From Brachionus manjavacas (taxonomy: Eukaryota > Rotifera > Eurotatoria > Ploima > Brachionidae): a DNA stretch of 64,000 nt. The notes beneath the pieces are model-generated. The model searched no databases and was not told where the DNA came from. It saw only the letters and a list, made by a program, of their open reading frames with translations. The stretch lies in the NCBI GenBank assembly GCA_019054805.1, contig JAHQIY010000012.1:2046001-2110000 (forward strand), read 5' to 3'. The position numbers and the translations under genes were made by a program. Below are positions 23,141 through 58,474 of the stretch, in pieces (position 1 is the stretch's first letter; each line of letters opens with the position of its first letter).

Positions 23141-23261
23141 TAACAGTTTATTGTTTTCAGTCAAAATTCATTAAACTAAAATGTAAAATAAATTTTGATT
23201 GTCAAATATTTAGGAATAGTTTTCAATATAATGAAAATCAAGCTTTATAAAAAAAGCTAAT

Positions 23262-23420
23262 TATGCCTTTTTTATCCTATCGGATAATAAGTGGAGGCGC
23301 TCATCTCTTTTTCAGTACCTTTTTGAGCCAGGGTTCCGATCTGATACAGAGGTAACTGCATTAAATCCTCTGATAAGATAACTAACACACAAGCCCTAAG
23401 TCTATACGAGCTTATGTAAC
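23262..23420. other. Structured, less AT-rich segment shared by A and B only
   Basis: Contains three self-complementary stems: TTATCC/GGATAA around TATC, GGCGCTCA with TGAGCC, and CAGAGG/CCTCTG. A GGGTTCCGATCTG stretch is only loosely like a pol III B box. It is conserved in block B (about 36370-36535) but absent from C and D. It could be a short interspersed element or an RNA-coding unit; I cannot assign it. Confidence 0.4.
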
Positions 23421-23507
23421 AAAAAAATTGGTGATATTTAAAACTTTATTTGAAAATAGAAATTTAGGTAAAAAAAATAGAGAAAAATTGTTTTTTAACA
23501 CTGAAAA

Positions 23508-24379
23508 TCAAAGAAAAAGACCAGATGCACATGGAGATGAGCATGGAGGTGGACAAGTTTGAACTGGTACGGGATGTGGAATAGGAACTGGCTGAGGGCA
23601 TGTTACTGGTTGTGGAACTGGTACAGGTTGTGGGCATGGCTGAGGTACTGGTTGAGAAACAGGTACTGGACATGGTTGAGGAACTGGAAATGGCAATGGA
23701 GTTGGACATGGTTGAGGTATTCTGATCGGAATTGGCACTTCTACTGGTACTGGAACTGGTCGTGGTACTCTAATTCTAATCGGAATTCGAACTGGACAAG
23801 GTTCTGGAACTGGTTGAGGTACTGGATACGGTTGTGGCACTGAGTATCTTACTGGAACTCTAACTGGAAGTGGAACTGCTACTGGCTGAGGAATTTGATA
23901 TGGCAATGGAACCTGAACTCGGTTCACTTGTGGAACTGGTTGTGGTATTTGAACAGGCTGAGCAACTGGTACAGGCTGGGGAATTCTGATTGGCGTTGGA
24001 ACTGGAACACGTTGAGGTACAGCTACAGGCTGAGGGCATGGAGTTGGAACTGGTACAGGTACTGGTCTTGGACAAGGAGTTGGCACTGGAATCTAAATAA
24101 AAGATACAAAATTTAATTTGTTTAATCTAATTCATTCAATAAACAGTCTTTGTAATGAAAACTTACAGTTACATGTTGTGGCACTGGAACTGGAGTGGGG
24201 ACTGGTGTTGGTACTGGGACTGGTATTCTACATGGAGCTTGATTTTTTGTTTGATATTTTATTTTTTAGTTATTAAAAAAATAATAATTACCAGCACATG
24301 GTGATGATGAGTCTGAAAAAGGTAGCGATAAAAGAGTTGAAAATTCAGAAGTAAATGGAGATGAATCGAAAAAAGCCAT
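23508..24379 (-). CDS. PVP1-A: Pro-Val repeat cysteine-containing protein, 247 aa
   Basis: Three exons on the minus strand: 24292-24379, 24167-24237 and 23508-24092. The introns are 54 and 74 bp with GT-AG ends, and phases join exactly (88 + 71 + 585 bp). The product has no signal peptide. It starts with a Ser/Phe-rich head (MAFFDSSPFTSEFS), ending SSSPCAAPC, then about 190 residues in which nearly every second residue is proline (units such as VPVPTPCPRPVPVP and IPQPVPVAQPVQ). It ends CPPPCSSPCASGLFL. Twelve cysteines sit mostly in PCP contexts; Gln is frequent. This copy reads STLLSLP in the head, where B has STPFSLP. It is divergent from PVP2-A with 394 bp between start codons. Function unknown: composition suggests an intracellular cross-linked structural protein, by analogy only. 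Confidence 0.88.
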
Positions 24380-24773
24380 CTTTATATTTATTATTTAATA
24401 AACTCTTGAGAATTATTAATTCAAAACAAATTGTCTAGTTGAAAAAAATTCATTTTCTATTTATATCAGAAGGTTCTTTGTTTTAAGTCCCATGCATTTG
24501 TAAATATTTTGTATGATAAATCTTTAAACAACAAAGATATGATTTTTAAATAATGTGTATTTATCTTACACTAGTGATTTGCAAAAATAATTGACAAAAA
24601 ATAAGAAACAATCAAAACAAATCGAATAGTTATGTAAAATTAATCGAAGCAGAAACTAGTTTTGTAATAATATAAATTCGAAGATAAAAAAGAATCAGAA
24701 CCTCAATAAAAATCAAATAAAAAACAACAATTTTATTAAAAAGAAAACAAATTTACCAACTTTTATAGAAACA
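24380..24773. promoter_or_regulatory. Shared bidirectional promoter of PVP1-A/PVP2-A
   Basis: Only 394 bp separate the two start codons. A TATAAATAG-type element lies on the minus strand at about 24458-24466 (80-90 bp before PVP1). A TATAAATTCG on the plus strand lies about 105 bp before PVP2. A TTTTATAG acceptor-like site directly before the PVP2 ATG could receive a 5'-UTR intron or a spliced leader. The whole interval is nearly identical in all four copies. Confidence 0.65.
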
Positions 24774-25748
24774 ATGTTCGGATTATCTTCATTTGACGGT
24801 AAATAGCTAGAAAAGCTCTGAAATTTCTATTTTTATTCCATCATAATTTAAATTTTTTTCATCAAAATCAAAGGCTCATTTGGCTCATTTGGCTCATTTG
24901 GCTCACCTTGTGAAACATCGTGTTGTCCACCTCCACCACCTCCACCGCAACCAGTACCAGTTCCAGTTCCCGTTCCACAGCCATATCCTGTTCCAGTCAG
25001 AATTCCTCGTCATGTTCCACATCCAATCCCAACTCCAGTTCCACAACCAGTATCATTTCCAGTAAGAGTACCGGTGCCAAGACCATGTCCAGTTCCGACC
25101 CCAGTCCCAGTTCCTCAACCATGCCCTGTACCAGTTCCATTCAGAGTTCCTGTGCGAGTGCCTGTCCCAGTTCAACTTACTATTCACGAGCCAGTTCCAC
25201 AAGCTCAAACTGTTCAAATTCCAATCAGAGTACCAGTACCACAGCCATGCCCAGTACCAACACCAGTTCCAACTCCAGTGCCAGTCCGAGTACCAATCAG
25301 AATTCCAGTCCCACAACCATACCCAGTTGTTGAATGTTTCCAAGTGCCGTACAGAGTTCCAGTTCCAAGACCATATCCAGGTTTGCTTATTAATCTTTTT
25401 TTTTTCTTTTCATTTTTTTAAGTTATAATTTAACTATTAACATTTTATATTTCAATTATAGTGCCAGAAAGATTCCCAGTTCCAATAAGAGTGCCAGTTC
25501 CACACAAATATCCAGTGCCTCAACCAGTATCAGTTCCATTTAAAATTCCAACTCCAGTGCCAGTCCCACAAAGAGTTCCAATACCAACTCCAGTGCCAGT
25601 ACCTCAACCAGTGCCTGTTCCAGTTCCACCACCGTGTCCACAGCCATGTGCACAGCCATGTCCATCACCATGTGCCACTTCTTCACCATTTCTACCATTT
25701 TCTTCTCAATTAGAAGCTACCTCATTTGATTCTCCGCTTTTGTTTTGA
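24774..25748 (+). CDS. PVP2-A: Pro-Val repeat cysteine-containing protein, 272 aa
   Basis: Exons 24774-24798, 24874-25380 and 25462-25748 (25 + 507 + 287 bp) join in frame, with introns of 75 and 81 bp. The head is MFGLSSFDG followed by a triplicated GSF repeat, SPCETSCC and a polyproline run. The body is Pro-x-Pro-x with x mostly Val, Gln, Arg, Thr, and includes one less regular insert, VQLTIHEPVPQAQTVQ, and a VVECFQVPYRVP turn. The end is PPPCPQPCAQPCPSPC followed by a Ser/Phe tail, FDSPLLF. It has eleven Cys and no signal peptide or membrane span. The Ser/Phe tail resembles the head of PVP1 in composition. Its partner gene is transcribed away from the same short intergenic region, so co-expression is likely. 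Family unknown. Confidence 0.88.
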
Positions 25749-26058
25749 ACAAATATTTTCCAGAATCCAAATTTTTTAATATATTCTATCTTTTTGAAAA
25801 AAAAATTAATTATTCAACTTCCTCAAATATGAATATTTACTTTAAGTTTTTTTTTTTAAAGCTTCCACAGTGAGACTAATTTAACCTCACTTAGCAGCTC
25901 TTCTGCTCTTGCTTTTACTATTTTATTTATTATTATCCTTTTATTGTCATTTTTAAATAAAAAAACAGTTTTCATACTTTTTGCAAAGTCTTTATTTTCT
26001 GAAATTATAAAAAAAAATATAAACAATTCAATTGATATTAACATTTAAAATTTAATTT

Positions 26059-27058
26059 TCAGTGTTTAAAGTTTATTAAATTTGGGAAATTTGTCAAAGT
26101 TACAAACGGATTGCTGAAGTATTCTAAATCGTTAAGAAAAAAATTATCATTTTTTTTCTCACTTAAGTTTCTCACATTATTAAATTTAAAACCACTTTTT
26201 AAGTCACTTGAATCCAACTTGGATGCATTGTATCTGTTTATCTTCAAATTTTTCATTTCCTGATCTGAATTAAGATAAAATGCCTCGTTTTTTAACTTAT
26301 CATAATTCGAAAAATTGCTTTTTGTTCTTTTGACCATCGCTAATGATCTTGGATCCAAATTGCTTAAGCATACTCTGCTTAAATCCTTTTCCATTATGTT
26401 CGCTTCTGAATTTTCCTGAATACTAACACTATGGTCAAGTTTTACATTGCTCAAACTACTCGAATTAGATCTGTAATCATCTCCAATATTTTTCCCAACT
26501 AAAATTAAAATTTAAAAAAGTTTGATGCGAACAAAATCAAATTTTACAAAATCTCATTGAACGCTCAATTGATGATATACTAGCTTCAATAATTTTATTT
26601 TCTGAGTTGTTAATTGTTGGATTGATTATGTTGTTTGTAATGAAGACACTTTCTCTAAAAATATTTTATTCTTGACAATAGATTTCTAGAAAATTTACCT
26701 TGGTCTGATAGGTTCGACCATTGTCATCTCCTTCTTTTGCTTTTCAAAATTAACTAAATAAATGGATAGAGAAAATTTCAATCAAGTTCTATGACTACTC
26801 ACAGTAAAATATTATTGAGCTGATTATGAACAATGAAATAGCAAACAAAAGTAAAAGAATGGCACTTATTATTTCCAAATAAGCTTTAAAAAATTCGATT
26901 AATAATAAGTGAAGTATATTTTATTAAAAATTACAATAGTCAAAGTTGTTCAATGGAGTTAGGAGACCGAAGCCGCTGCAATAAGAATTAGTGAGAATCA
27001 GCAAAGTCGAGGAGATCAGCTCCATTATTGTATCAGCAACTATTAGTACGAGATTCAT
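26059..27058 (-). CDS. Unrecognised two-TM protein with long polar tail, five exons
   Basis: Exons 26935-27058, 26803-26883, 26699-26753, 26548-26654 and 26059-26498 have consistent phases and total 268 codons. The introns are only 44-51 bp. The product has an N-terminal hydrophobic helix (MNLVLIVADTIMELISSTLLIL), a short extracytoplasmic loop with two Cys, a second strong helix (YLEIISAILLLLFAISLFII) and a roughly 190-residue Asn/Ser/Lys-rich tail ending FPNLINFKH. The start chosen is the first ATG of the first recognisable exon. Upstream exons may exist or may have been lost where an RT remnant begins at 27178. A fragment of its 3' end was carried into block B at 33637. I do not recognise the family. 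Its helix-loop-helix layout recalls the end of the Ig gene upstream on the same strand. Confidence 0.7.
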
Positions 27059-27177
27059 TCTTTTTAAATCATTTTCTAAATAAAAATAATTAAAAATTTT
27101 ATAGAAAATATAAAAAAGGCTAGGCAATCAAATCTTATTTTTGATCTGTTAATAAAATAATAAAACTTAAGCACATA

Positions 27178-27835
27178 TGGAAACACGCGAGAAGAGAGAG
27201 CAACTACAAAAAGACATCGACAATGAAACTGAATGGTGCAATACGTGGAACATGAATTTAAACTCTAAAAAATGCAAAGCAATGAGCTTTGGTCATGGAA
27301 ACACCAAGTACAAGTGTGCCACAAAAAAGCATCAAAAATGTTAGGCATGCTAAAAAACACATTTATAAATCGAGGGTGCGAGTTATGGAAGAAGCTATGC
27401 ACAAGCCAAATAAGACCTCGTTTAGAGTTTGCGGTCCCAGTATGATCACTACAAAATATTCAAAGGTGCCAATTGTAACTAGGAATATGAACTACGCAGA
27501 GCGACAAGTTAAAATGAATTTCACCAGACTCGAAGCAAGAAGAAAAAAGAGAAGATCTGATACAAATGTATAAAATCATCAATTGCCTCGAAAACGTAAA
27601 CCTTCATCAAAGACCGATGCTTAGAAATTCAATTGGTATAAATGGTTCAGTTGCCTCAATGAGGGGTCACAGTAAACGTATCAGATCACAGAGCTTTACA
27701 GCAGCAGAAATAAATGATAACTATGCTTTTGGTAATTCCCGAAGGAGTTTCTTCACAAATAGAGTGGCAAGCTTGTGGAAAAGACTTCCAATCAACTATG
27801 TAGAATCAGAAAATTTAACACTTTTGAGTTAACTA
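27178..27835 (+). pseudogene. CR1-like RT C-terminal half, degenerate
   Basis: Starts after motif C with WCNTWNMNLNSKKCKAMSFG (the post-FADD helix and the KCK-x-M strand). It continues through frameshifted NTFINRGCELWKKLC and RPRLEFAVPV pieces, then NYAERQVKMNFTRLEARRKK, and ends with the SFFTNRVASLWKRLP signature. The order matches the RT C-terminus at 15.9-16.65 kb. Several frameshifts and a deletion are present. It abuts the 5' side of the TM-protein gene and may have truncated it. Confidence 0.75.
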
Positions 27836-33636: not shown

Positions 33637-33727
33637 AAAATGATAATTTTTTTCTTAACGATTTAGAAAACTTCAGCAATCCGTTTGTAACTTTGACAAA
33701 TTTCCCAAATTTAATAAACTTTAAACA
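33637..33727 (+). pseudogene. Truncated 3' end of the TM-protein gene (copy of 26059 region)
   Basis: Encodes FLNDLENFSNPFVTLTNF and the remaining residues up to the stop, nearly identical to the C-terminus of the gene at 26059-27058 (one Tyr to Asn change). All upstream exons are missing. This marks the duplication breakpoint. Confidence 0.85.
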
Positions 33728-34041
33728 CTGAAAATTAAATTTTAAATGTTAATATCAATTGAATTGTTTATATTTTTTTTTTATAATTTCAGAAAATAAA
33801 AACTTTGCAAAAAGTATGAAAATTGTTTTTTATTTAAAAATGACAATAAAAGGATAATAATAAATAAAATAGTAAAAGCTAGAGCAGAAGAGCTGCTAAG
33901 TGAGGTTAAATTAGTCTCACTGTGGAAGCTTTAAAAAAAAAAACTTAAAGTAAATATTCATATTTGAGGAAGTTGAATAATTAATTTTTTTTTCAAAAAG
34001 ATAGAATATATTAAAAAATTTGGATTCTGGAAAATATTTGT

Positions 34042-35016
34042 TCAAAACAAAAGCGGAGAATCAAATGAGGTAGTTTCTAATTGAGTAGAAAATGGTAGAA
34101 ATGGTGAAGAAGTGGCACATGGTGATGGACATGGCTGTGCACATGGCTGTGGACACGGTGGTGGAACTGGAACAGGCACTGGTTGAGGTACTGGCACTGG
34201 AGTTGGTATTGGAACTCTTTGTGGGACTGGCACTGGAGTTGGAATTTTAAATGGAACTGATACTGGTTGAGGCACTGGATATTTGTGTGGAACTGGCACT
34301 CTTACTGGAACTGGGAATCTTTCTGGCACTATAATTGAAATATAAAATGTTAATAGTTAAATTATAACTTAATAAATGAAAGGAAAAAAAAAAGATTAAT
34401 AATCAAACCTGGATATGGTCTTGGAACTGGAACTCTGTACGGCACTTGGAAACATTCAACAACTGGGTATGGTTGTGGGACTGGAATTCTGATTGGTACT
34501 CGGACTGGCACTGGAGTTGGAACTGGTGTTGGTACTGGGCATGGCTGTGGTACTGGTACTCTGATTGGAATTTGAACAGTTTGAGCTTGTGGAACTGGCT
34601 CGTGAATAGTAAGTTGAACTGGGACAGGCACTCGCACAGGAACTCTGAATGGAACTGGTACAGGGCATGGTTGAGGAACTGGGACTGGGGTCGGAACTGG
34701 ACATGGTCTTGGCACCGGTACTCTTACTGGAAATGATACTGGTTGTGGAACTGGAGTTGGGATTGGATGTGGAACATGACGAGGAATTCTGACTGGAACA
34801 GGATATGGCTGTGGAACGGGAACTGGAACTGGTACTGGTTGCGGTGGAGGTGGTGGAGGTGGACAACACGATGTTTCACAAGGTGAGCCAAATGAGCCAA
34901 ATGAGCCAAATGAGCCTTTGATTTTGATGAAAAAAAATTTAAATTATGATGGAATAAAAATAGAAATTTCAGAGCTTTTCTAGCTATTTACCGTCAAATG
35001 AAGATAATCCGAACAT
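34042..35016 (-). CDS. PVP2-B: Pro-Val repeat protein, 272 aa
   Basis: Exons 34992-35016, 34409-34915 and 34042-34328 have the same phases and lengths as copy A. Distinguishing residues: Val instead of Ile in the RFPVPVRVP strand at the start of exon 3 (shared with copy C, not A or D), and STQLETTSF in the tail, unique to this copy. The first base change of intron 2 (GGTTTGATT rather than GGTTTGCTT) is shared with D. The gene is fully open, so the inverted copy has been kept functional or is very recent. Confidence 0.87.
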
Positions 35017-35411
35017 TGTTTCTATAAAAGTTGGTAAATTTGTTTTATTTTTAATAAAATTGTTGTTTTTTATTTGGTTTTTTATTGAGGTTCTGACTCT
35101 TATTTATCTTCGAATTTATATTATTACAAAACTAGTTTCTGCTTCGATTGATTTTACATAACTATTCGATTTGTTTTGATTGTTTCTTATTTTTTGTCAA
35201 TTATTTTTGCAAATCACTAGTGTAAGATAAATACACATTATTTAAAAATCATATCTTTGTTGTTTAAAGATTTATCATACAAAATATTTACAAATGCATG
35301 GGACTTAAAACAAAGAACCTTCTGATATAAATAGAAAATGAATTTTTTTCAACTAGACAATTTGTTTTGAATTAATAATTCTCAAGAGTTTATTAAATAA
35401 TAAATATAAAG
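35017..35411. promoter_or_regulatory. Shared bidirectional promoter of PVP2-B/PVP1-B
   Basis: 395-bp divergent interval, nearly identical to the one in copy A but inverted. TATAAATAG at about 35325-35333 lies 80 bp before the PVP1 ATG. Confidence 0.6.
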
Positions 35412-36283
35412 ATGGCTTTTTTCGATTCATCTCCATTTACTTCTGAATTTTCAACTCCTTTTTCGCTACCTTTTTCAGACTCATCATCACCATGTGCTGG
35501 TAATTATTATTTTTTTAATTACTAAAAAATAAAATATCAAACAAAAAATCAAGCTCCATGTAGAATACCAGTCCCAGTACCAACACCAGTCCCCACTCCA
35601 GTTCCAGTGCCACAACATGTAACTGTAAGTTTTCATTACAAAGACTGTTTATTGAATGAATTTGATTAAACAAATTAAATTTTGTATCTTTTATTTAGAT
35701 TCCAGTGCCAACTCCTTGTCCAAGACCAGTACCTGTACCAGTTCCAACTCCATGCCCTCAGCCTGTAGCTGTACCTCAACGTGTTCCAGTTCCAACGCCA
35801 ATCAGAATTCCCCAGCCTGTACCAGTTGCTCAGCCTGTTCAAATACCACAACCAGTTCCACAAGTGAACCGAGTTCAGGTTCCATTGCCATATCAAATTC
35901 CTCAGCCAGTAGCAGTTCCACTTCCAGTTAGAGTTCCAGTAAGATACTCAGTGCCACAACCGTATCCAGTACCTCAACCAGTTCCAGAACCTTGTCCAGT
36001 TCGAATTCCGATTAGAATTAGAGTACCACGACCAGTTCCAGTACCAGTAGAAGTGCCAATTCCGATCAGAATACCTCAACCATGTCCAACTCCATTGCCA
36101 TTTCCAGTTCCTCAACCATGTCCAGTACCTGTTTCTCAACCAGTACCTCAGCCATGCCCACAACCTGTACCAGTTCCACAACCAGTACCATGCCCTCAGC
36201 CAGTTCCTATTCCACATCCCGTACCAGTTCAAACTTGTCCACCTCCATGCTCATCTCCATGTGCATCTGGTCTTTTTCTTTGA
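35412..36283 (+). CDS. PVP1-B: Pro-Val repeat protein, 247 aa
   Basis: Exons 35412-35499, 35554-35624 and 35699-36283. The head reads STPFSLPFSDSSSPC. Near the C-terminus this copy has PQPVPCPQP, as in D, where A and C have PQPVTCPQP. The final tail is CASGLFL, as in A, where C and D have CGSGLFL. This mixture of shared differences does not follow the block pairing. The downstream flank carries the structured segment also present in A. Confidence 0.87.
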
Positions 36284-36547
36284 TTTTCAGTGTTAAAAAA
36301 CAATTTTTCTCTATTTTTTTTTTACCTAAATTTCTATTTTCAAATAAAGTTTTAAATATCACCAATTTTTTTGTTACATAAGCTCGTATAGACTTAGGGC
36401 TTGTGTGTTAGTTATCTTATCAGAGGATTTAATGCAGTTACCTCTGTATCAGATCGGAACCCTGGCTCAAAAAGGTACTGGAAAAGAGATGAGCGCCTCC
36501 ACTTATTATCCGATAGGATAAAAAAGGCATAATTAGCTTTTTTTTTT

Positions 36548-37400
36548 AGTTTTATAATTTCATTATTTTGAAAACTATTTCCAAATATTAGACAATTAAA
36601 TTTATTCTAAATTTTAGTCTAATGAATTTTCCCTTATTACAATGAACTGTTATTATAAGGTCTTTCAACTTTATCTAAATTAAGTAAGAGTAATTGAAAA
36701 TAGATCATTCGTAAGACATAAGTAAAAAATAGAATAAAAAGCTAAATTAAATTCATGTATATAAGCAGATTGAAGTTACAAATATAATAAAAATTATAAA
36801 TATCCACACAATTTTCATTTTCATCAATGTTAACTTTCCAGTCAACTAAATTTTAAAGATATTCAAAAGATTTTTTAAGGATCTTTAAAAGTTCTTTATA
36901 TATTCTCTTTTTTTAAAAGAAAATAGAAAGATTATTTAGAGATTTATTTTAAGTATAAAATTTTTATAGAATTTTCTTCAATTGATTTTTCTTCATTTTT
37001 CTTTATTTTTCAGAAACTATATTTTTAACACTATCTAAAGTAAAGTTTTTACTGTTATATAACATGAAAATATAAATTGAAAATTTCATATAACTGATAG
37101 ATTTTAAAAAAATTTATTAAATAATTTAAATTTTTGACTAAAACAACAAAATTAATAATGTGAAAACTAATCGTTTTTTACCAACAAATGTTAATTTAAT
37201 TTTGCAATTTTTAAAATTATATACGCTAGATTTAAAAAAAACGTTCTTTTATTTCAATTTATCTAATTAGTTTGACTGAATCTTATTTTTAAAGCTTCAT
37301 TGCAGAAAATGCTAAAAAAATTTGAATACTTACGGACCTTGGATAAAAAAATTTCCTAAAAGCACTGCCTATAATTATAAAAAAAGAAGAGCTTATTTCG
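36548..37400. other. AT-rich gene-free stretch
   Basis: No coding sequence or repeat recognised between block B and the decayed transposon that starts near 37420. Confidence 0.5.
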
Positions 37401-42709: not shown

Positions 42710-44035
42710 TTATTTTTTATCAAATTGACAAAGTATATGTTTCAAAGCGATTATGCTCCATTCTCTCAAAAACGGATTTTCTACATCTAAATTTAAATTT
42801 TCGGCAATGATTTGTAGCAAATTGTCGTCAACTAGACAATTTTGATTTCTTTGGTTTTCGTAGACTAAAATTCCGATCATCCTCACCAACTCACATTTCA
42901 ACAACAACCACTCAAATGACTTTGAGCTGGAATATTTTTCCACTAAAATCGCATAGTTTCGGTTGCAATTTATTTCCTTGAACAATTTACAAGTAGATTG
43001 AAACAGTTGGTCTTGATCCTGAACAAATGACACCATCTGTTTATTATTAAACAGTCTTGTCTCTTCCAGTGTTAATAAATCGCTTAAAATCCCGGCTATC
43101 AACTTAGTCTGCCTAAATGAGTCAACAACTTCATCAAATGTTTTTTCTAAAATTTGATCAAATAAACCCAATAGATCCTGAAATGTAAGTGTGTATATCT
43201 GACAAATAAATGCTAGACTCTTAAAATTTAGAAAAGTCCTTTGAATTTTTGTCTCTTTTGCATCCAACAATCTATCACTAATGTGATAAATGAGAAAAAA
43301 TGTGAACCTTTTTGAAAAATCTTTGGTATCACACTCAACTAAGTATTTCAAATAAAAAAAGTCGAACATTTTGTCCAGGAGTTTGAATGTCCAGTTGGAA
43401 AATTTGGTCGCCAAGGTCTCATTTTTGAACTGTTCTTCAACACTTTCGACCAAATTGACAAAATTAACAAAATCAAATTTTGAAAAAATGTCTTCATATA
43501 ATTTATCACTGTTTTCTTGGCCCTTAAAAGCGTTTATTATAATCATAGATGATATGTCCGATACTTGAGCATCCAAATTTTGGTTTTTTAATAAATCTAG
43601 AGCTAAATTTGTCCATTTAGAGGATCGTTTGTCTAATGCTGTTATATTTCCTTGAACTAAATTGAAAATGTATTGAAGAATGTTCAAATGAAAATGAAAT
43701 TCATCTTGGTCTGCGTTTTTAGGATTGACAAAAAGTTTTCTATCTAAAATTTGAACTAATTGATCGCATAGATCGCACTCTTCTTGACTAAATTCTGTTT
43801 TGAATGAGGCGGCTGAATTTTTTATGCATTTTAGAATTTGTCGTAAAGTGGTCCATCTCTTTTGATCAGAATGAAAAATTGTTGACAATTTTTGGTATAA
43901 GACTGTGTAAAAAAGGACGGGTGTTTGGCATCGAAAATCCTGGTGCTGTTTGATGTGTGTGTCGAGATCATTTAGTAAAATTACAAAGTTTTTATCAAAG
44001 GGAGACAAGCCATCTAGAGCAGTTACTATTTCCAT
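42710..44035 (-). CDS. ATXN10: Ataxin-10
   Basis: Single-exon ORF of 441 aa, close to the usual 470-500 aa of animal ataxin-10. The protein is all helical with ARM-like repeats. The conserved C-terminal ataxin-10 domain is recognisable: LLLKCELVRMIGILVYENQ followed by VENPFLREWSIIALKHIL at about residues 418-435. In animals ataxin-10 is a cytoplasmic scaffold linked to cytokinesis and O-GlcNAc transferase. The first ATG gives MEIVTALDGLSPFDKNF, conserved in the duplicated fragment at 58145. It lies 370 bp downstream of the PVP2-C stop on the same strand. The 5' third was copied into block D. A single exon is unusual for this gene family, but no processed-copy signs (poly-A tract, TSD) are seen. 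Confidence 0.85.
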   Translation of the reverse strand: MEIVTALDGLSPFDKNFVILLNDLDTHIKQHQDFRCQTPVLFYTVLYQKLSTIFHSDQKRWTTLRQILKCIKNSAASFKTEFSQEECDLCDQLVQILDRKLFVNPKNADQDEFHFHLNILQYIFNLVQGNITALDKRSSKWTNLALDLLKNQNLDAQVSDISSMIIINAFKGQENSDKLYEDIFSKFDFVNFVNLVESVEEQFKNETLATKFSNWTFKLLDKMFDFFYLKYLVECDTKDFSKRFTFFLIYHISDRLLDAKETKIQRTFLNFKSLAFICQIYTLTFQDLLGLFDQILEKTFDEVVDSFRQTKLIAGILSDLLTLEETRLFNNKQMVSFVQDQDQLFQSTCKLFKEINCNRNYAILVEKYSSSKSFEWLLLKCELVRMIGILVYENQRNQNCLVDDNLLQIIAENLNLDVENPFLREWSIIALKHILCQFDKK

Positions 44036-44405
44036 TGTGGAAAATAAAATAGAACTTTAATACTATTTATCTTATTGATTGCAAAATAGAAAAAAAATAT
44101 TAAATAAACTTCACTATTAATATATAAATTTTGATTTAACAAATAGTTTTTAAAAATAAGTTTAAAAGAATTTGATAATTATTACAGAAAAAATAATTTT
44201 TTTTTCAAATTTAGACTTAGATTTTGTCTTTTATTCAATTTGAGAGTAAAATTCAAATTCAACTCTAAAATTGATTAAAATTAAAGTTGAATTAGATAAG
44301 ATTTTTTGTTTATATTAGAAAATATATTTGCGAACAAGAGGATATTGAATATTTAAAAAAAAAATCTAAAAAAATTAATAAATTGCGATTCTGGAAAATA
44401 ATTGT

Positions 44406-45386
44406 TCAAAACAAAAGCGGAGAATCAAATGAGGTAGCTTCTAATTGAGAAGAAAATGGTAGAAATGGTGAAGAAGTGGCACATGGTGATGGACATGGCT
44501 GTGCACATGGCTGTGGACACGGTGGTGGAACTGGAACAGGCACTGGTTGAGGTACTGGCACTGGAGTTGGTATTGGAACTCTTTGTGGGACTGGCACTGG
44601 AGTTGGAATTTTAAATGGAACTGATACTGGTTGAGGCACTGGATATTTGTGTGGAACTGGCACTCTTACTGGAACTGGGAATCTTTCTGGCACTATAATT
44701 GAAATATAAAATGTTAATAGTTAAATTATAACTTAAAAAATGAAAAGAAAAAAAAAAGATTAATAAGCAAACCTGGATATGGTCTTGGAACTGGAACTCT
44801 GTACGGCACTTGGAAACATTCAACAACTGGGTATGGTTGTGGGACTGGAATTCTGATTGGTACTCGGACTGGCACTGGAGTTGGAACTGGTGTTGGTACT
44901 GGGCATGGCTGTGGTACTGGTACTCTGATTGGAATTTGAACAGTTTGAGCTTGTGGAACTGGCTCGTGAATAGTAAGTTGAACTGGGACAGGCACTCGCA
45001 CAGGAACTCTGAATGGAACTGGTACAGGGCATGGTTGAGGAACTGGGACTGGGGTCGGAACTGGACATGGTCTTGGCACCGGTACTCTTACTGGAAATGA
45101 TACTGGTTGTGGAACTGGAGTTGGGATTGGATGTGGAACATGACGAGGAATTCTGACTGGAACAGGATATGGCTGTGGAACGGGAACTGGAACTGGTACT
45201 GGTTGCGGTGGAGGTGGAGGTGGTGGAGGTGGACAACACGATGTTTCACAAGGTGAGCCAAATGAGCCAAATGAGCCAAATGAGCCTTTGATTTTGATGA
45301 AAAAAAATTTAAATTATGATGGAATAAAAATAGAAATTTCAGAGCTTTTCTAGCTATTTACCGTCAAATGAAGATAATCCGAACAT
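44406..45386 (-). CDS. PVP2-C: Pro-Val repeat protein, 274 aa
   Basis: Exons 45362-45386, 44773-45285 and 44406-44692. Exon 2 is 513 bp because the polyproline run has two extra Pro codons (also in D, absent in A and B). The 5' leader lacks two A residues just before the ATG relative to A, B and D. It has Val in RFPVPVRVP, as in B. Fully open. It precedes ATXN10 on the same strand. Confidence 0.87.
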
Positions 45387-45779
45387 TGTCTATAAAAGTT
45401 GGTAAAATTGTTTTCTTTTTAATAAAATTGTTGTTTTTTATTTGATTTTTTATTGAGGTTCTGACTCTTTTTTATCTTCGAATTTATATTATTACAAAAC
45501 TAGTTTCTGCTTCGATTGATTTTACATAACTATTCGATTTGTTTTGATTGTTTCTTATTTTTTGTCAATTATTTTTGCAAATCACTAGTGTAAGATAAAT
45601 ACACATTATTTGAAAATCATATCTTTGTTGTTTAAAGATTTATCATACAAAATATTTACAAATGCATGGGACTTAAAACAAAGAACCTTCTGATATAAAT
45701 AGAAAATGAATTTTTTTCAACTAGTCAATTTGTTTTGAATTAATAATTCTCAAGAGTTTATTAAATAATAAATATAAAG
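45387..45779. promoter_or_regulatory. Shared bidirectional promoter of PVP2-C/PVP1-C
   Basis: 393-bp divergent interval with the same TATAAATAG placement (about 80 bp before the PVP1 ATG) and few substitutions versus the other copies. Confidence 0.6.
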
Positions 45780-46651
45780 ATGGCTTTTTTCGATTCATCT
45801 CCATTTACTTCTGAATTTTCAACTCCTTTATCGCTACCTTTTTCAGACTCATCATCACCATGTGCTGGTAATTTTTATTTTTTTAATTACTAAAAAATAA
45901 AATATCAAACAATAAATCAAGCTCCATGTAGAATACCAGTCCCAGTACCAACACCAGTCCCCACTCCAGTTCCAGTGCCACAACATGTAACTGTAAGTTT
46001 TCATTACAAAGACTGTTTATTGAATGAATTAGATTAAACAAATTAAATTTTGTATCTTTTATTTAGATTCCAGTGCCAACTCCTTGTCCAAGACCAGTAC
46101 CTGTACCAGTTCCAACTCCATGCCCTCAGCCTGTAGCTGTACCTCAACGTGTTCCAGTTCCAACGCCAATCAGAATTCCCCAGCCTGTACCAGTTGCTCA
46201 GCCTGTTCAAATACCACAACCAGTTCCACAAGTGAACCGAGTTCAGGTTCCATTGCCATATCAAATTCCTCAGCCAGTAGCAGTTCCACTTCCAGTTAGA
46301 GTTCCAGTAAGATACTCAGTGCCACAACCGTATCCAGTACCTCAACCAGTTCCAGAACCTTGTCCAGTTCGAATTCCGATTAGAATTAGAGTACCACGAC
46401 CAGTTCCAGTACCAGTAGAAGTGCCAATTCCGATCAGAATACCTCAACCATGTCCAACTCCATTGCCATTTCCAGTTCCTCAACCATGTCCAGTACCTGT
46501 TTCTCAACCAGTACCTCAGCCATGCCCACAACCTGTACCAGTTCCACAACCAGTAACATGCCCTCAGCCAGTTCCTATTCCACATCCCGTACCAGTTCAA
46601 ACTTGTCCACCTCCATGCTCATCTCCATGTGGATCTGGTCTTTTTCTTTGA
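45780..46651 (+). CDS. PVP1-C: Pro-Val repeat protein, 247 aa
   Basis: Exons 45780-45867, 45922-45992 and 46067-46651. It has head STPLSLPF as in D, PQPVTCPQP as in A, and tail CGSGLFL as in D. Intron positions and phases are identical to the other copies. No lesions. The block ends about 100 bp past the stop (GTTGATTCTTTT), after which sequence is unique AT-rich DNA. Confidence 0.87.
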
Positions 46652-46757
46652 TTTTCAGTGTTTAAAAACAATTTTTCCCTATTTTTTTTTTTACCTAAAT
46701 TTCTATTTATAAACAAAGTTTTAAAAAATACTAGTTTTTGTTGATTCTTTTGATTTT

Positions 46758-50590: not shown

Positions 50591-51241
50591 ATGAATTGTT
50601 TATTAATTGTTCTGTTGGCTGTTGTTGGTCTCATCAACGCTCAATGCACCTACTACACCATTCAACCTGGCGACACCTATGACGCCATCGCTAGAAGATA
50701 CGGAACCAGTGCTAGTGTTCTTCAGCAAGCTAATCCAACCATTCCAGCCAACTTGTTGAAAGTTGGTCAATCAATCTGTATTCCAAGCGGATACAACAAC
50801 TACAATGGATACAACACTTACACCAACACTTACCCAACTTACAACAACTACGGTACCAATTGTGGCAACTATATCATCAAAGCAGGAGATACCTGCGCTG
50901 CATTGTCTCAAGGCTCGCTCAGCAATTTCAATCAATTGAACCCGGGTATCAACTGCAACAATTTGCAAATCGGTCAAGCAGTCTGCGTTCCATACGGTAC
51001 CCAAACCAATTATAATAATGGCGCTTACAACCCAAACTACAATAATGGTGCTTACTATCCAGACTACAACAATGGTGCTTACAATCCAGGCTATGCTTGC
51101 TCTGGCAGAAGTTACACTGTCCAAGCAGGTGACACTTGTTGGTCAATTGCTCAACGATACGGCACAACAACTGAAAATGTTCAGTCATGCATTGGAGTCA
51201 ATTGCTCAAACTTGCAAGTTGGCCAAGTTATTACATTTTAA
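50591..51241 (+). CDS. Secreted protein with three LysM domains, 216 aa
   Basis: Single-exon ORF with a clear signal peptide (MNCLLIVLLAVVGLINA). LysM 1 is at about residues 20-64 (YYTIQPGDTYDAIARRYGTS ... LKVGQSICIP). LysM 2 is at about 95-135 (YIIKAGDTCAALSQG ... LQIGQAVCVP). LysM 3 is at about 170-216 (YTVQAGDTCWSIAQRYGTT ... LQVGQVITF). Asn/Tyr/Gly-rich linkers with a near-tandem NNGAY-NP repeat separate domains 2 and 3. Cysteines bracket each LysM. LysM binds chitin or peptidoglycan, so roles in cuticle, mucus or antimicrobial defence are possible. Codon use is clearly less AT-rich than its surroundings, and it has a TATA box and an AATAAA about 35 bp after the stop, as expected for a highly expressed gene. 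The multi-LysM, linker-rich layout is fungal-like, so ancient transfer is worth testing. Confidence 0.9.
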   Translation: MNCLLIVLLAVVGLINAQCTYYTIQPGDTYDAIARRYGTSASVLQQANPTIPANLLKVGQSICIPSGYNNYNGYNTYTNTYPTYNNYGTNCGNYIIKAGDTCAALSQGSLSNFNQLNPGINCNNLQIGQAVCVPYGTQTNYNNGAYNPNYNNGAYYPDYNNGAYNPGYACSGRSYTVQAGDTCWSIAQRYGTTTENVQSCIGVNCSNLQVGQVITF

Positions 51242-53729: not shown

Positions 53730-54010
53730 ATTGTAAAATAGCTTATCTGGATGGTCGAAAAGCATTTGATTATATTGAGAAATAGGATGTTTTACAAACT
53801 TATTCCTAGATTTGAACTAGATTGAAGTCTTCTTAAGACTTTGCTTCAGTTAATTTGTCTACCAAAAGATGCAATTCTCACCAGTTATTTTATTGTTTTT
53901 ATCAATGACATAATTAATGGATTGACAGAAATCAATCTAGGGGCCATATTTAACAATTTAAAGTTATCGGTAACGCTGAGGATACTATACTCATCAAAAA
54001 AGTCGATACT
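53730..54010 (+). pseudogene. RT fragment (motif A and C region), degenerate
   Basis: Plus-strand pieces: IAYLDGRKAFDYIEK (motif A with the catalytic Asp), then after stops LPKDAILTSYFIVFINDI and NGLTEINLGAIFNNLKLS, then a frameshifted AEDTILIKKVDTHL in place of ADDTILI. The strand pattern (E-I-N-L-G-x-x-F-N-N) fits the RT family whose C-terminus is seen at 51.7-52.2 kb. Multiple lesions. Confidence 0.6.
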
Positions 54011-54019
54011 CACTTATAG

Positions 54020-54840
54020 AATTTAATTTTTGTTACAAGTTGGAGACTAAAATGGCCCTTTAAAGTTTAAGTTTAATCAATTTTTATTGCTCAAATTAAT
54101 CAAATCAAGTTTTAATCATGAAATATAAAGAAAATTTTTAAAAGAAAAAATTCAGTGATACATTTTTGGATTTAAAATACTTTGTAAAATTAAAAATTAA
54201 TATCTGCAAAATTTTGCAAATAATTACTCCCTTGAAATAGCATCAATTAGATAATATGAATTCAGCAATGAGCTTTTAATAATGCAGAGTTAACCGTATC
54301 ATTAAACAAAGTATGTTCAATCCAAATATGTAATTTTGCATTATTTATATTAAGAAATTTTTATATATTTCATAATTAAAACTTGATTAGATCATTTTAA
54401 AAATCAAAAATTGATCATTAACTTCAAGTTGCGGACTAAATTTAATCCTTATAGGTCAAACGTCATTGAATTTGTTTATCTTTTGATAAAAAATAGAAAA
54501 ATATTGGTTAACTCTTTATTCAAATAATGTCTACATATTTGACCAGTCTCCTTTTTTTTCAATAACAACCGGAATGACAATTTTAATTTATTAATGAGTT
54601 TTAGACATTTTTCTGATTTTAGACTTTCTGTATAGTGTTTTATCGCTAGATTAATTTCTTCATTGTTCAATCACATCTTAGAAAAGTAGAAAAGGATTCA
54701 AACACATCTTTTGTGCACATTTCGTGGAAAAATCAAGATAAACATTTCAAGAAATCTTTTATTTATTAACCTCCTAATAAACTTGGTGGTTTAAACTCAG
54801 ATTAATAGCAACCTTGTAAACGTCTTCCAGATCGGCGAGT
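54020..54840. other. AT-rich stretch, no gene recognised
   Basis: Includes a 64-codon Lys/Asn-rich minus-strand frame (54476-54670) that I do not recognise and consider possibly chance. Confidence 0.4.
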
Positions 54841-54843
54841 CTC

Positions 54844-54981
54844 TACTGCAAGCAAACTTACTTCAAAGTTTTTGATAGCCCGAGCAAAAACGCCTTTTGT
54901 TCCAAGTGTAATCGAAGTGGTCACTCATCAGACAAGTGTTCAATCGCTAAAATAATTTCTCAAAAAAGCTTTGTCGATTAA
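54844..54981 (+). pseudogene. CCHC zinc-knuckle fragment (retroelement gag/ORF1-like)
   Basis: Encodes YCKQTYFKVFDSPSKNAF followed by CSKCNRSGHSSDKC, an exact Cys-x2-Cys-x4-His-x4-Cys knuckle as found in gag and non-LTR ORF1 proteins, then a stop. No start is recognisable. Likely the C-terminal part of a retroelement RNA-binding ORF. Confidence 0.6.
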
Positions 54982-54984
54982 GTT

Positions 54985-55436
54985 GATAAAGATGAGAAAA
55001 ATTTTGACAACAGAGATATAAATAAAACCACGACGAAGTAATTATGTAAACAAATTTGGCTCATTCGAGCAATGTTTACCGAGTAGAGTCCTCGTCGACT
55101 GTTCCGAGTTCCGGGTAAAACCGCTTAAGCTCTGGATATTTAAGCATAATGAATAAAAAATCTAACCAAGATGAGGTAAAAAAAAAAAGAAAACTAAATC
55201 GAAAATTCCAAGGTCATCCCAGAATAAAAATGCACCTGAGTTCAAAGTACCTGCAGTTTCAAGAGTGTCAATGTCTAGTTCAACATTTGGTAAATCAAGC
55301 TCTGTAAAACGTTCAAGCGAAACGTTCTCAATAATAGCCTAAAAAGGGACAAAATCGATGGACAATCCCAGTCACATCCTAAATAATGTTTCATCCAGGA
55401 ATTAGCGCAGTTCATCGAAAAATCAGCAAGAACTAG
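54985..55436. other. Ser/Lys-rich remnant frames next to block D
   Basis: From an ATG at about 55150 a Lys-rich then Ser-rich frame (SKIPRSSQNKNAPEFKVP, SSTFGKSSSVKRSS) runs with one frameshift to about 55340. It could belong to the same retroelement ORF1 as the zinc knuckle upstream. Block D was inserted or copied in immediately after. Confidence 0.3.
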
Positions 55437-55535
55437 AAAAGAATCAACAAAAACTAGTATTTTTTAAAACTTTGTTTATAAATAGAAATTTAGGTAAAAA
55501 AAAAATAGGGAAAAATTGTTTTTAAACACTGAAAA

Positions 55536-56407
55536 TCAAAGAAAAAGACCAGATCCACATGGAGATGAGCATGGAGGTGGACAAGTTTGAACTGGTACGG
55601 GATGTGGAATAGGAACTGGCTGAGGGCATGGTACTGGTTGTGGAACTGGTACAGGTTGTGGGCATGGCTGAGGTACTGGTTGAGAAACAGGTACTGGACA
55701 TGGTTGAGGAACTGGAAATGGCAATGGAGTTGGACATGGTTGAGGTATTCTGATCGGAATTGGCACTTCTACTGGTACTGGAACTGGTCGTGGTACTCTA
55801 ATTCTAATCGGAATTCGAACTGGACAAGGTTCTGGAACTGGTTGAGGTACTGGATACGGTTGTGGCACTGAGTATCTTACTGGAACTCTAACTGGAAGTG
55901 GAACTGCTACTGGCTGAGGAATTTGATATGGCAATGGAACCTGAACTCGGTTCACTTGTGGAACTGGTTGTGGTATTTGAACAGGCTGAGCAACTGGTAC
56001 AGGCTGGGGAATTCTGATTGGCGTTGGAACTGGAACACGTTGAGGTACAGCTACAGGCTGAGGGCATGGAGTTGGAACTGGTACAGGTACTGGTCTTGGA
56101 CAAGGAGTTGGCACTGGAATCTAAATAAAAGATACAAAATTTAATTTGTTTAATCTAATTCATTCAATAAACAGTCTTTGTAATGAAAACTTACAGTTAC
56201 ATGTTGTGGCACTGGAACTGGAGTGGGGACTGGTGTTGGTACTGGGACTGGTATTCTACATGGAGCTTGATTTTTTGTTTGATATTTTATATTTTAGTAA
56301 TTAAAAAAATAATAATTACCAGCACATGGTGATGATGAGTCTGAAAAAGGTAGCGATAAAGGAGTTGAAAATTCAGAAGTAAATGGAGATGAATCGAAAA
56401 AAGCCAT
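55536..56407 (-). CDS. PVP1-D: Pro-Val repeat protein, 247 aa
   Basis: Exons 56320-56407, 56195-56265 and 55536-56120. It has head STPLSLPF and tail CGSGLFL as in C, but PQPVPCPQP as in B. No stop, frameshift or splice-site change relative to the other copies. Confidence 0.87.
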
Positions 56408-56802
56408 CTTTATATTTATTATTTAATAAACTCTTGAGAATTATTAATTCAAAACAAATTGTCTAGTTGAAAAAAATTCATTTTCTATTTATATCAGAAG
56501 GTTCTTTGTTTTAAGTCCCATGCATTTGTAAATATTTTGTATGATAAATCTTTAAACAACAAAGATATGATTTTCAAATAATGTGTATTTATCTTACACT
56601 AGTGATTTGCAAAAATAATTGACAAAAAATAAGAAACAATCAAAACAAATCGAATAGTTATGTAAAATCAATCGAAGCAGAAACTAGTTTTGTAATAATA
56701 TAAATTCGAAGATAAAAAAGAGTCAGAACCTCAATAAAAAATCAAATAAAAAACAACAATTTTATTAAAAAGAAAACAAATTTACCAACTTTTATAGAAA
56801 CA
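56408..56802. promoter_or_regulatory. Shared bidirectional promoter of PVP1-D/PVP2-D
   Basis: 395-bp divergent interval with the same TATA placement as in the other copies. Confidence 0.6.
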
Positions 56803-57775
56803 ATGTTCGGATTATCTTCATTTGACGGTAAATAGCTAGAAAAGCTCTGAAATTTCTATTTTTATTCCATCATAATTTAAATTTTTTTTCATCAAAATCA
56901 AAGGCTCATTTGGCTCATTTGGCTCACCTTGTGAAACATCGTGTTGTCCACCTCCACCACCTCCACCTCCACCGCAACCAGTACCAGTTCCAGTTCCCGT
57001 TCCACAGCCATATCCTGTTCCAGTCAGAATTCCTCGTCATGTTCCACATCCAATCCCAACTCCAGTTCCACAACCAGTATCATTTCGAGTAAGAGTACCG
57101 GTGCCAAGACCATGTCCAGTTCCGACCCCAGTCCCAGTTCCTCAACCATGCCCTGTACCAGTTCCATTCAGAGTTCCTGTGCGAGTGCCTGTCCCAGTTC
57201 AACTTACTATTCACGAGCCAGTTCCACAAGCTCAAACTGTTCAAATTCCAATCAGAGTACCAGTACCACAGCCATGCCCAGTACCAACACCAGTTCCAAC
57301 TCCAGTGCCAGTCCGAGTACCAATCAGAATTCCAGTCCCACAACCATACCCAGTTGTTGAATGTTTCCAAGTGCCGTACAGAGTTCCAGTTCCAAGACCA
57401 TATCCAGGTTTGATTATTAATCTTTTTTTTTTCTTTTCATTTTTTTAAGTTATAATTTAACTATTAACATTTTATATTTCAATTATAGTGCCAGAAAGAT
57501 TCCCAGTTCCAATAAGAGTGCCAGTTCCACACAAATATCCAGTGCCTCAACCAGTATCAGTTCCATTTAAAATTCCAACTCCAGTGCCAGTCCCACAAAG
57601 AGTTCCAATACCAACTCCAGTGCCAGTACCTCAACCAGTGCCTGTTCCAGTTCCACCACCGTGTCCACAGCCATGTGCACAGCCATGTCCATCACCATGT
57701 GCCACTTCTTCACCATTTCTACCATTTTCTTCTCAATTAGAAGCTACCTCATTTGATTCCCCACTTTTGTTTTGA
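56803..57775 (+). CDS. PVP2-D: Pro-Val repeat protein, 271 aa
   Basis: Exons 56803-56827, 56904-57407 and 57489-57775. Exon 2 is 504 bp: it has the two extra Pro codons of C but lacks one GSF repeat unit. Unique change SFRVRVP where the other copies have SFPVRVP. It has Ile in RFPVPIRVP, as in A. Open throughout. Confidence 0.87.
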
Positions 57776-58144
57776 ACAATTATTTTCCAGAATCGCAATT
57801 TATTAATTTTTTTAGATTTTTTTTTAAATATTCAATATCCTCTTGTTCGCAAATATATTTTCTAATATAAATAAAAAATCTTATCTAATTCAACTTTAAT
57901 TTTAATCAATTTTATAGTTGAATTTGAATTTCACTCTCAAATTGAATAAAAGACAAAATCTAAGTCTAAATTTGAAAAAAAAAATTATTTTTTCTGTAAT
58001 AACTATCAAATTCTTTTAAACTTATTTTAAAAACTATTTGTTAAATCAAAATTTATTTATTAATAGTGAAGTTTATTTTAAATTTTTTTTCTATTTTGCA
58101 ATCAATAAGATAAATAGTATTAAAGTTCTATTTTATTTTCCACA

Positions 58145-58474
58145 ATGGAAATAGTAACTGCTCTAGATGGCTTGTCTCCCTTTGATAAAAACTTTGTAAT
58201 TTTACTAAATGATCTCGACTCACACATCAAACAGCACCAGGATTTTCGATGCCAAACACCCGTCCTTTTTTACACAGTCTTATACCAAAAATTGTCAACA
58301 ATTTTTCATTCTGATCAAAAGAGATGGACCACTTAACGACAAATTCTAAAATGCATAAAAAATTTAGCCGCCTCATTCAAAACAGAATTTAGTCAAGAAG
58401 AGTGCGATCTATGCGATCAATTAGTTCAAATTTTAGATAGAAAACTTTTTGTCAATTCTAAAAACGCTGACCAA
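58145..58474 (+). pseudogene. Truncated ATXN10 pseudogene
   Basis: Near-identical copy of the first 110 or so codons of the ataxin-10 gene at 44035, starting MEIVTALDGLSPFDKNF with one Thr-to-Ser change at the LNDLDSHIK stretch. A T-to-A change turns Leu of TTLRQIL into a stop (TAA) after codon 63. Homology continues past it (CIKNLAASFKTEFSQEECD) and ends abruptly after NADQ. Truncation plus the nonsense mutation mean it cannot make ataxin-10. It is passenger sequence of duplication D. Confidence 0.92.

What the first reader, a model, noticed from the sequence alone, without database searches (positions are those of the whole stretch)
23250..58474. Four copies of a divergent gene pair encoding Pro-Val repeat cysteine proteins
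Two related but distinct proteins (PVP1 247 aa, PVP2 271-274 aa) with proline at nearly every second position, 11-12 Cys and no signal peptide are encoded back to back, with about 394 bp between start codons. The pair occurs four times in 35 kb, and all eight genes are open with identical intron positions. I know of no described family with this architecture. Composition (PCP motifs, Gln, alternating Pro) suggests an intracellular disulfide- or transglutaminase-linked structural material. If the organism is a rotifer, the intrasyncytial lamina is one candidate site.
Basis: partly seen in the sequence, partly recalled or inferred. Interest (0 to 1): 0.92.

Follow-up and report, generated by a model that had tools for sequence, protein, structure and literature searches.

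The report
Rotifer family of paired proline-rod genes
This stretch of an apparently rotifer genome holds four copies of a back-to-back pair of genes for proline-rich, cysteine-armed proteins; they belong to a family of at least 51 genes under strong selection and look like a bulk structural material, organised much like silkmoth eggshell genes but without an evident signal for secretion.

Summary
All eight window genes splice cleanly and stay open. The same genome (114 Mb) holds at least 51 intact family members, these eight included: 22 PVP1, 23 PVP2, 3 PVP3, 3 PVP4, with 21 head-to-head PVP1/PVP2 pairs. Five further loci were too divergent or broken to model. Between representatives dN/dS is 0.08-0.22 in 54 of 56 comparisons (dS 0.2-1.1), so these are selected protein genes.

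The core has proline at every second position only, in 51 of 51 genes, and a fixed length in 44 of 45 PVP1 and PVP2. Cys-Pro arms and short tails flank it. In the window, CDS differ by 0.1-0.7% while about 130 bp of flank differ by 13.5-13.7% between the two lineages, suggesting gene conversion. No Pfam or NCBIfam family was found; the only close database relative is an unnamed Brachionus calyciflorus protein.

Best explanation: co-expressed, disulfide-linked cytoplasmic structural rods; the rotifer intracytoplasmic lamina (lorica) is the leading but unproven site. Gene layout parallels silkmoth high-cysteine chorion. Scarce lysine argues against transglutaminase self-linking.

The parts
23508..24379 (-). 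PVP1 copy A, 247 aa; exons 24292-24379, 24167-24237, 23508-24092
24774..25748 (+). PVP2 copy A, 272 aa; exons 24774-24798, 24874-25380, 25462-25748
   Evidence: a spliced aligner gives the same exons
34042..35016 (-). PVP2 copy B, 272 aa; exons 34992-35016, 34409-34915, 34042-34328
35412..36283 (+). PVP1 copy B, 247 aa; exons 35412-35499, 35554-35624, 35699-36283
44406..45386 (-). PVP2 copy C, 274 aa; exons 45362-45386, 44773-45285, 44406-44692
45780..46651 (+). PVP1 copy C, 247 aa; exons 45780-45867, 45922-45992, 46067-46651
55536..56407 (-). PVP1 copy D, 247 aa; exons 56320-56407, 56195-56265, 55536-56120
56803..57775 (+). PVP2 copy D, 271 aa; exons 56803-56827, 56904-57407, 57489-57775
24380..24773 (.). 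Presumed shared bidirectional promoter, copy A: TATAAAT 86 nt before the PVP1 ATG and 103 nt before the PVP2 ATG; GAAGCAG upstream of the PVP2 TATA box
35017..35411 (.). Presumed shared bidirectional promoter, copy B (TATA at -86 and -104)
45387..45779 (.). Presumed shared bidirectional promoter, copy C (TATA at -86 and -102)
56408..56802 (.). Presumed shared bidirectional promoter, copy D (TATA at -86 and -104)
23133..26153 (.). Duplication unit A; inverted partner of unit B, 98.25% over 3028 bp
33637..36660 (.). Duplication unit B
43703..46751 (.). Duplication unit C; inverted partner of unit D, 98.69% over 3053 bp
55437..58477 (.). Duplication unit D; its end (58014-58477) matches 43703-44166, the 5' part of the ataxin-10-like gene

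Best explanation
A rotifer multigene family makes a bulk structural material. Each PVP protein is probably a stiff, extended rod (polyproline-II-like, about 190-200 core residues, roughly 60 nm if fully extended at the recalled rise of 3.1 Angstrom per residue). Its X-Pro register never slips, and in PVP1 and PVP3 one of three faces is poor in Val/Ile and richer in Cys and Gln (in PVP3 also Arg/His). Cys-Pro arms at both ends, plus Cys in most cores, allow disulfide linking, and short Ser/Phe/Gly/Ala tails may add self-association. PVP1 and PVP2 are made together from a shared promoter with two TATA boxes, and many homogenised copies raise output. With no signal-peptide-like stretch the product should stay in the cytoplasm; the intracytoplasmic lamina (lorica) of the integument is the most likely site. 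Shown: gene structure, pairing, TATA boxes, purifying selection, fixed register, near-fixed PVP1 and PVP2 core length, homogenisation. Inferred: rod conformation, disulfide linking, co-expression, cytoplasmic location, lorica.
For: 51 intact genes and 21 head-to-head pairs. dN/dS 0.08-0.22 in 54 of 56 PVP1 and PVP2 comparisons; the other two are 0.23 (dS 0.10) and 0.25 (dS 0.05). All core prolines on one parity in 51 of 51 genes (68-85 against 0); core length 201 in 21 of 22 PVP1 and 198 in 23 of 23 PVP2, while arms range from 15 to 70 residues. Three-face Val/Ile contrast reached in 0 of 5000 shuffles when one member of each of four subfamilies is pooled; periods of 2, 4 and 5 units give p 0.53, 0.85 and 0.25. 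TATA box 63-104 nt before the ATG in 50 of 51 genes. PVP1 and PVP2 core distances correlate at r = 0.93 over 21 pairs (20 divergent, one head to tail; one divergent pair with a deleted core left out; distances are not independent). 414 of 692 Cys lie between two prolines. Hydropathy maximum 0.26-1.55 over 25 distinct N-termini against 2.7-3.3 in four database VP-repeat proteins, three of them named insects.
Against: No transcript, proteomic or localisation evidence was available. AlphaFold2 on one PVP1 exon gave pLDDT 57 and no secondary structure, which neither supports nor excludes a rod. Face periodicity is not significant in PVP2 of the window or in PVP4 taken alone, one database protein (P0017) also shows a 6-residue period (p 0.001), and the period could be a relic of an 18-bp repeat origin. 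PVP3 and PVP4 cores vary in length (189-199, 188-198), so a fixed length holds only for PVP1 and PVP2, and the one PVP4 core tested for it has no Cys. The only named bdelloid hit (P0042, E 1.3e-5) looks like a composition match, although an intracytoplasmic lamina is widespread in rotifers (recalled; for Asplanchnopus seen). Sources seen differ on the lorica: scleroprotein and external cuticle in PMC10246822, chitin-containing in PMC5333405. Only hydropathy, not a trained signal-peptide predictor, was used.
Confidence: 0.45

Rival explanations
1. Eggshell or resting-egg shell proteins, a rotifer counterpart of insect chorion, released by an unconventional route or from cytoplasmic granules.
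For: Gene organisation is strikingly like silkmoth HcA/HcB chorion: 21 head-to-head pairs 330 nt apart, small first exon, two TATA boxes, gene regions 86-96% identical against 300-bp flanks 48-72%, gene conversion (passages of PMC4639761). Here 21 pairs, 18 of them 393-599 bp apart, and CDS 0.1-0.7% apart against 13.5-13.7% in about 130 bp of flank between lineages.
Against: No signal-peptide-like stretch in 25 distinct N-termini, whereas chorion is secreted. No protein named chorion appeared among the 34 and 42 hits.
Confidence: 0.2
2. Material of another intracellular rotifer structure: trophi-supporting cells, foot and toes, cilia-associated rootlets, or the filament-bearing rods made in the testis.
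For: Testis rods of a rotifer contain 11-15 nm hollow filaments whose protein the authors say remains to be identified (passage of PMC13403294); several subfamilies on four contigs could serve different structures.
Against: No tissue data; testis rods look tubular, which an extended rod does not explain directly.
Confidence: 0.2
3. Members of the insect-type VP-repeat cuticle protein family, present by common descent or transfer.
For: Most named database hits besides P0001 are insects (a barnacle, a nematode and a bdelloid also appear), and some database VP-repeat proteins also keep an X-Pro register for 99-205 residues.
Against: Of 14 database proteins with long registers (five named insects), 8 show an 8-residue contrast reached in 0 of 2000 shuffles, whereas PVP1 and PVP3 show 6; one of the 14, P0017, shows 6. 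Four of four tested carry hydrophobic N-termini, and the 14 have 0 or 1 Cys in the register stretch. A search with PVP2 core residues 100-180 found only a termite protein (E 5.9e-5) and P0001.
Confidence: 0.07
4. A by-product of segmental duplication or mobile elements with no protein function.
For: Units are recent, inverted and lie among retroelement remnants. Within the window PVP1 differences are all non-synonymous, 0 synonymous against 1-3.
Against: dN/dS 0.08-0.22 in 54 of 56 comparisons, 51 intact genes, conserved TATA boxes.
Confidence: 0.03

Closest known systems
Silkmoth high-cysteine chorion HcA/HcB gene pairs (PMC4639761, passages seen)
   Same: Two related gene types joined into head-to-head pairs with a short shared promoter holding two TATA boxes; many pairs clustered, some inverted; small first exon; high Cys; gene regions homogenised while flanks diverge.
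   Different: PVP proteins lack a signal-peptide-like stretch, have a proline-alternating core, and show no detectable sequence relation in the searches made; found in an apparent rotifer, not an insect.
Insect VP-repeat cuticle proteins (hits named cuticle protein 65-like, putative cuticle protein CPG39, zinc finger protein 512B-like and others)
   Same: Val-Pro alternation; long in-register stretches in some.
   Different: 8-residue rather than 6-residue periodicity in 8 of 14 database proteins tested (four of these 8 named insects), 0-1 Cys in the register stretch, hydrophobic N-terminus in the four tested; gene pairing in insects not tested.
Unnamed protein of Brachionus calyciflorus (P0001)
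   Same: Residues from 243 on match the PVP1 core, C-terminal PC motifs and an S/G/F/L tail; 71-78% identical to all 22 modelled PVP1 genes over about 100-120 residues.
Small proline-rich proteins (cornifins) and loricrin of the vertebrate cornified envelope (recalled, no call)
   Same: Cytoplasmic, Pro-, Cys- and Gln-rich, clustered genes for an intracellular protective layer.
   Different: Those are linked by transglutaminase through Lys and Gln; PVP proteins have almost no Lys. None was named among the hits.

Membership tests
Silkmoth chorion family | Head-to-head A/B gene pairs with short common promoter | tested here: met
   21 divergent pairs, 18 of them 393-599 bp ATG to ATG, 3 at 1682-1999 bp; compared with 330 nt in PMC4639761
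Silkmoth chorion family | Sequence homology to chorion central domains | tested here: not met
   No Pfam match for PVP1 or PVP2; no protein named chorion among 34 and 42 hits
Silkmoth chorion family | Secreted with signal peptide | tested here: not met
   Maximum 11-residue hydropathy 0.26-1.55 in the first 40 residues of 25 distinct N-termini; no trained predictor available
Insect VP-repeat cuticle proteins | Val-Pro alternating repeat | tested here: met
Insect VP-repeat cuticle proteins | Same repeat period | tested here: not met
   8-residue contrast in 8 of 14 database proteins with 0 of 2000 shuffles; PVP1 and PVP3 show 6, PVP2 and PVP4 not significant alone, P0017 shows 6
Insect VP-repeat cuticle proteins | Secretory N-terminus | tested here: not met
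   four database proteins (three named insects) 2.7-3.3, PVP at most 1.55
Transglutaminase-linked envelope proteins (SPRR/loricrin type) | Lys and Gln available for isopeptide bonds | tested here: not met
   Gln plentiful, Lys 123 of 14,737 residues and 0 in 9 of 51 proteins; linking to another Lys-bearing protein is not excluded
Rotifer lorica / intracytoplasmic lamina protein | Present in isolated lorica | not testable with these tools
   No proteome held; the lorica is called scleroprotein in PMC10246822, citing Bender and Kleinow 1988 (passage)
Rotifer lorica / intracytoplasmic lamina protein | Cytoplasmic, not secreted | tested here: inconclusive
   No hydrophobic N-terminal stretch, no direct test

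The most novel reading that the evidence does not exclude
PVP proteins are the unidentified scleroprotein of the rotifer intracytoplasmic lamina: an intracellular armour built from X-Pro rods of strict register with a Cys-bearing face and disulfide arms. It is encoded by a locus system that arrived independently at the paired, gene-converted layout of insect chorion.
Probability: 0.33. Interest if true: 0.85.

Novelty: new variant of a known kind. Interest (0 to 1): 0.63.

Why it matters
Rotifers carry a skeletal layer inside the skin cell layer (recalled; one example seen), and six searches of this library with terms for lorica, integument, keratin, intracytoplasmic or intrasyncytial lamina, Bender and Kleinow, disulfide and proline-rich turned up no gene for its protein in the listings seen; most subscription papers are not in it. 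A large, selected, apparently undescribed family of proline-cysteine proteins without secretory start in a brachionid is a concrete candidate that can be tested by mass spectrometry of isolated lorica, or by gene editing, which is reported for a rotifer (PMC10395877, listing with title and start of abstract only). It is also a clean case of likely convergence with insect chorion loci, and a natural design for a rod made only of X-Pro units.

Tried and rejected
Promoter battery: the motif GAAGCAT N8-18 TATAAAT occurs 49 times in the genome against 15 for the reversed control. Six of the 49 are PVP promoters. Of the rest, 20 regions were read; they were parts of tandem arrays on C13 and C34 and scattered singles with no shared gene class visible, so no co-regulated set is claimed. 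The excess over the control comes partly from those arrays.

Fold: AlphaFold2 on one window exon, without alignment, gave mean pLDDT 57 and no secondary structure; no fold search was run on it. PDB by sequence, PVP2 only: one weak match, 8zvk_A, E 0.0023, no stretch passing on its own, not taken as a relative.

Bdelloid lead: Rotaria protein P0042 has a VP stretch and no hydrophobic start, but it found nothing in the own genome, and the tool warns that an empty answer shows nothing.

Unique X-Pro register: rejected as a distinguishing mark, because some other database VP-repeat proteins keep it for 99-205 residues.

Fixed core length as a family-wide rule: rejected; it holds in PVP1 (21 of 22) and PVP2 (23 of 23) but not in PVP3 and PVP4.

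First-pass gene models placed wrong first exons and some false 3' introns; they were replaced (one search stopped with a script error). Five of 56 first-pass models (L023, L028, two in L032, L036) were too divergent or broken and were left out of all counts; no attempt was made to restore them. Short or weak genome matches (such as those on C5, C20, C22, C47 and C3:8.70 Mb) were not fetched.

Phage collection: a 2-kb piece of the window found no match there, as expected for an animal genome.

Species: not determined. Literature on the lamina protein: six searches; one search was for the genome and for chorion.
Full report
OBSERVATION. The window is C12:2046001-2110000 of a 114.2 Mb genome in 61 contigs. 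It holds four head-to-head PVP1/PVP2 pairs. Splicing gives PVP1 of 247 aa with 12 Cys (four of four) and PVP2 of 271-274 aa with 11 Cys (four of four), each with two GT-AG introns of 54-81 nt. Start codons are 393-395 bp apart. The copies come as inverted partners: A with B (98.25% over 3028 bp) and C with D (98.69% over 3053 bp); about 2384 bp is shared by all four at 97.9-98.2% across partners.

ORGANISM. The nearest protein in a database of about 5.8 billion is an unnamed Brachionus calyciflorus protein, P0001 (E 8.6e-26 with PVP1). Its PVP1-like part is 71-78% identical to all 22 modelled PVP1 genes, so the window is probably a brachionid or near relative but not that species. Low GC and genome size resemble B. 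plicatilis (106.9 Mb, 26.75% GC in a table of PMC11954553, passages). The species was not determined.

THE FAMILY IS LARGE. Own-genome searches gave 88 matches with PVP1 and 92 with PVP2, exon by exon. A spliced aligner run on 56 loci, the window's eight included, refined, gave 51 complete genes with start, stop and GT-AG introns: 22 PVP1, 23 PVP2, 3 PVP3 (C3, 2.18-2.21 Mb) and 3 PVP4 (C15, 2.22-2.24 Mb). Five models were left out as too divergent or broken, and short or weak matches were not fetched. There are 21 divergent pairs: 18 on C12 in five sub-clusters between 1.98 and 3.15 Mb (393-599 bp between ATGs), and 3 on C1 near 11.5-11.9 Mb (1682-1999 bp). A further PVP1/PVP2 pair on C1 at 4.59 Mb is head to tail, and one PVP2 at C12:3135973 has no partner. 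The first intron is in phase 1 in PVP2, PVP3, PVP4 and in PVP1 of the window and C1, but is missing from the other C12 PVP1 genes. In 15 C12 PVP2 genes outside the window the first coding exon is only 7 nt and was assigned by rule, so their start is less certain.

SELECTION. Among eight representatives each, NG86 gives PVP1 dN/dS 0.11-0.22 in 27 of 28 comparisons (0.25 in the one with dS 0.05) and PVP2 0.08-0.22 in 27 of 28 (0.23 in the one with dS 0.10). Third codon positions take most changes. PVP3 gives 0.10-0.33 and PVP4 0.36, 0.36 and one pair without differences, at low dS. Comparisons are not independent. Inside the window PVP1 shows 0 synonymous and 1-3 non-synonymous codon changes, PVP2 0-4 and 1-4, too few to judge.

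PROTEIN ANATOMY. All core prolines lie on one parity in 51 of 51 genes. The core is 201 aa in 21 of 22 PVP1 (the other is 177), 198 aa in 23 of 23 PVP2, 189-199 in PVP3 and 188-198 in PVP4; these length differences are even numbers within each subfamily, so register is kept. PVP1 and PVP2 cores of standard length have 142 and 143 invariant columns; their arms vary from 15 to 70 aa. Reading the X positions alone, Val/Ile content differs between the three faces that a threefold helix would have. The pooled contrast of one member from each of four subfamilies was reached in 0 of 5000 shuffles; periods of 2, 4 and 5 X units gave p 0.53, 0.85 and 0.25. Singly, PVP1 and PVP3 are strong, one of three PVP2 is significant (p 0.004; the others 0.06 and 0.13) and PVP4 is not (0.06). 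In PVP1, core Cys columns 0, 120, 150, 156, 162, 174 and 186 fall on one face and 28 and 40 on another; in PVP2, 44, 56 and 98 share a face and 127 does not. A hexapeptide origin (18-bp DNA repeats) could also leave this period, so the rod model is inference. Of 14 database VP-repeat proteins, 8 show an 8-residue contrast instead and one, P0017, a 6-residue one. 414 of 692 Cys are in PCP. Lys is 123 of 14,737 residues, which argues against transglutaminase linking among these proteins.

GENE CONTROL AND HOMOGENISATION. A TATA box lies 63-104 nt before the ATG in 50 of 51 genes. A motif NAAGCA(T/G) stands shortly upstream of it in PVP2 (23 of 23), PVP3, PVP4 and the three C1 11.5-11.9-Mb PVP1, but not in the C12 PVP1 genes or the 4.59-Mb PVP1 (in two PVP3 and the PVP4 read by eye from the printed sequence). 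Cores are 0-0.5% apart within C12 sub-clusters (up to 3.5% within the C1 group) and on average 4-27% apart between sub-clusters; PVP1 and PVP2 distances correlate at r = 0.93 over 21 pairs. In the window, CDS differ by 0.1-0.7%, introns by 1.1-2.1%, the region between ATGs by 0.5-1.5%, and the flanks inside the shared unit (131-133 aligned bases only) by 13.5-13.7% between A/B and C/D but 0% within each. This suggests gene conversion confined to the gene pair. C-terminal tails after the last Cys are identical between PVP1 and PVP2 in 9 of 21 divergent pairs (all eight of the 2.73-2.77 and 2.90-2.94 Mb clusters, one at 3.15 Mb), differ by one residue in two more, and differ more in the other ten, including all four window pairs, so exchange also seems to run between the two gene types.

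FUNCTION. Two partners kept together, many homogenised copies, strict register, Cys arms and no secretory start point to a bulk intracellular structural material. The rotifer lorica is described as scleroprotein, citing Bender and Kleinow 1988 (passage of PMC10246822, which also calls it an external cuticle; the cited paper itself was not seen). A Brachionus manjavacas transcriptome paper calls the lorica chitin-containing (passage of PMC5333405). An intracytoplasmic lamina is described in rotifer epidermis (passages of PMC13403294). That PVP proteins are in it is not shown. Silkmoth chorion is the closest in gene organisation (passages of PMC4639761), not in sequence.

LIMITS. No transcript, proteome or localisation data. 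Protein searches scored only the 7,985 and 7,989 candidates sharing most words, one search scored 697; other rotifer genomes could not be searched as DNA. Own-genome counts are lower bounds by the tool's own statement.

Noticed in passing
window 42713-44056 (-) and 58014-58477: Ataxin-10-like gene (Atx10homo_assoc); its 5' part was copied along with PVP unit D as a fragment.
   Followed up: partly
window 50591-51241 (+): Protein with three LysM stretches and, by eye, a signal-peptide-like start and N/Y-rich linkers; a second LysM-like reading frame, by eye only, lies in L056.
   Followed up: no
window 62071-64000 (+): RRM-bearing gene start, GC 55% in a window otherwise 21-37% GC; recalled as resembling SETD1 histone methyltransferases, not tested.
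   Followed up: no
window 13262-16674 and 18099-18698: Non-LTR retroelement with endonuclease and reverse transcriptase in neighbouring reading frames, and a second endonuclease-like remnant just below the Pfam cut-off.
   Followed up: no
window 20236-22966 (+): Pieces of a papain-type cysteine protease with I29 propeptide, apparently in several exons.
   Followed up: no
G000 C13:474604-503763 and C34:168513-174446: Tandem arrays with six and four copies of a GAAGCAT-TATAAAT motif, unrelated to PVP as far as seen.
   Followed up: partly
P0042, P0066: VP-repeat proteins without a hydrophobic start and nearly without Cys; P0042 is from the bdelloid Rotaria socialis, P0066 has no named source.
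   Followed up: partly
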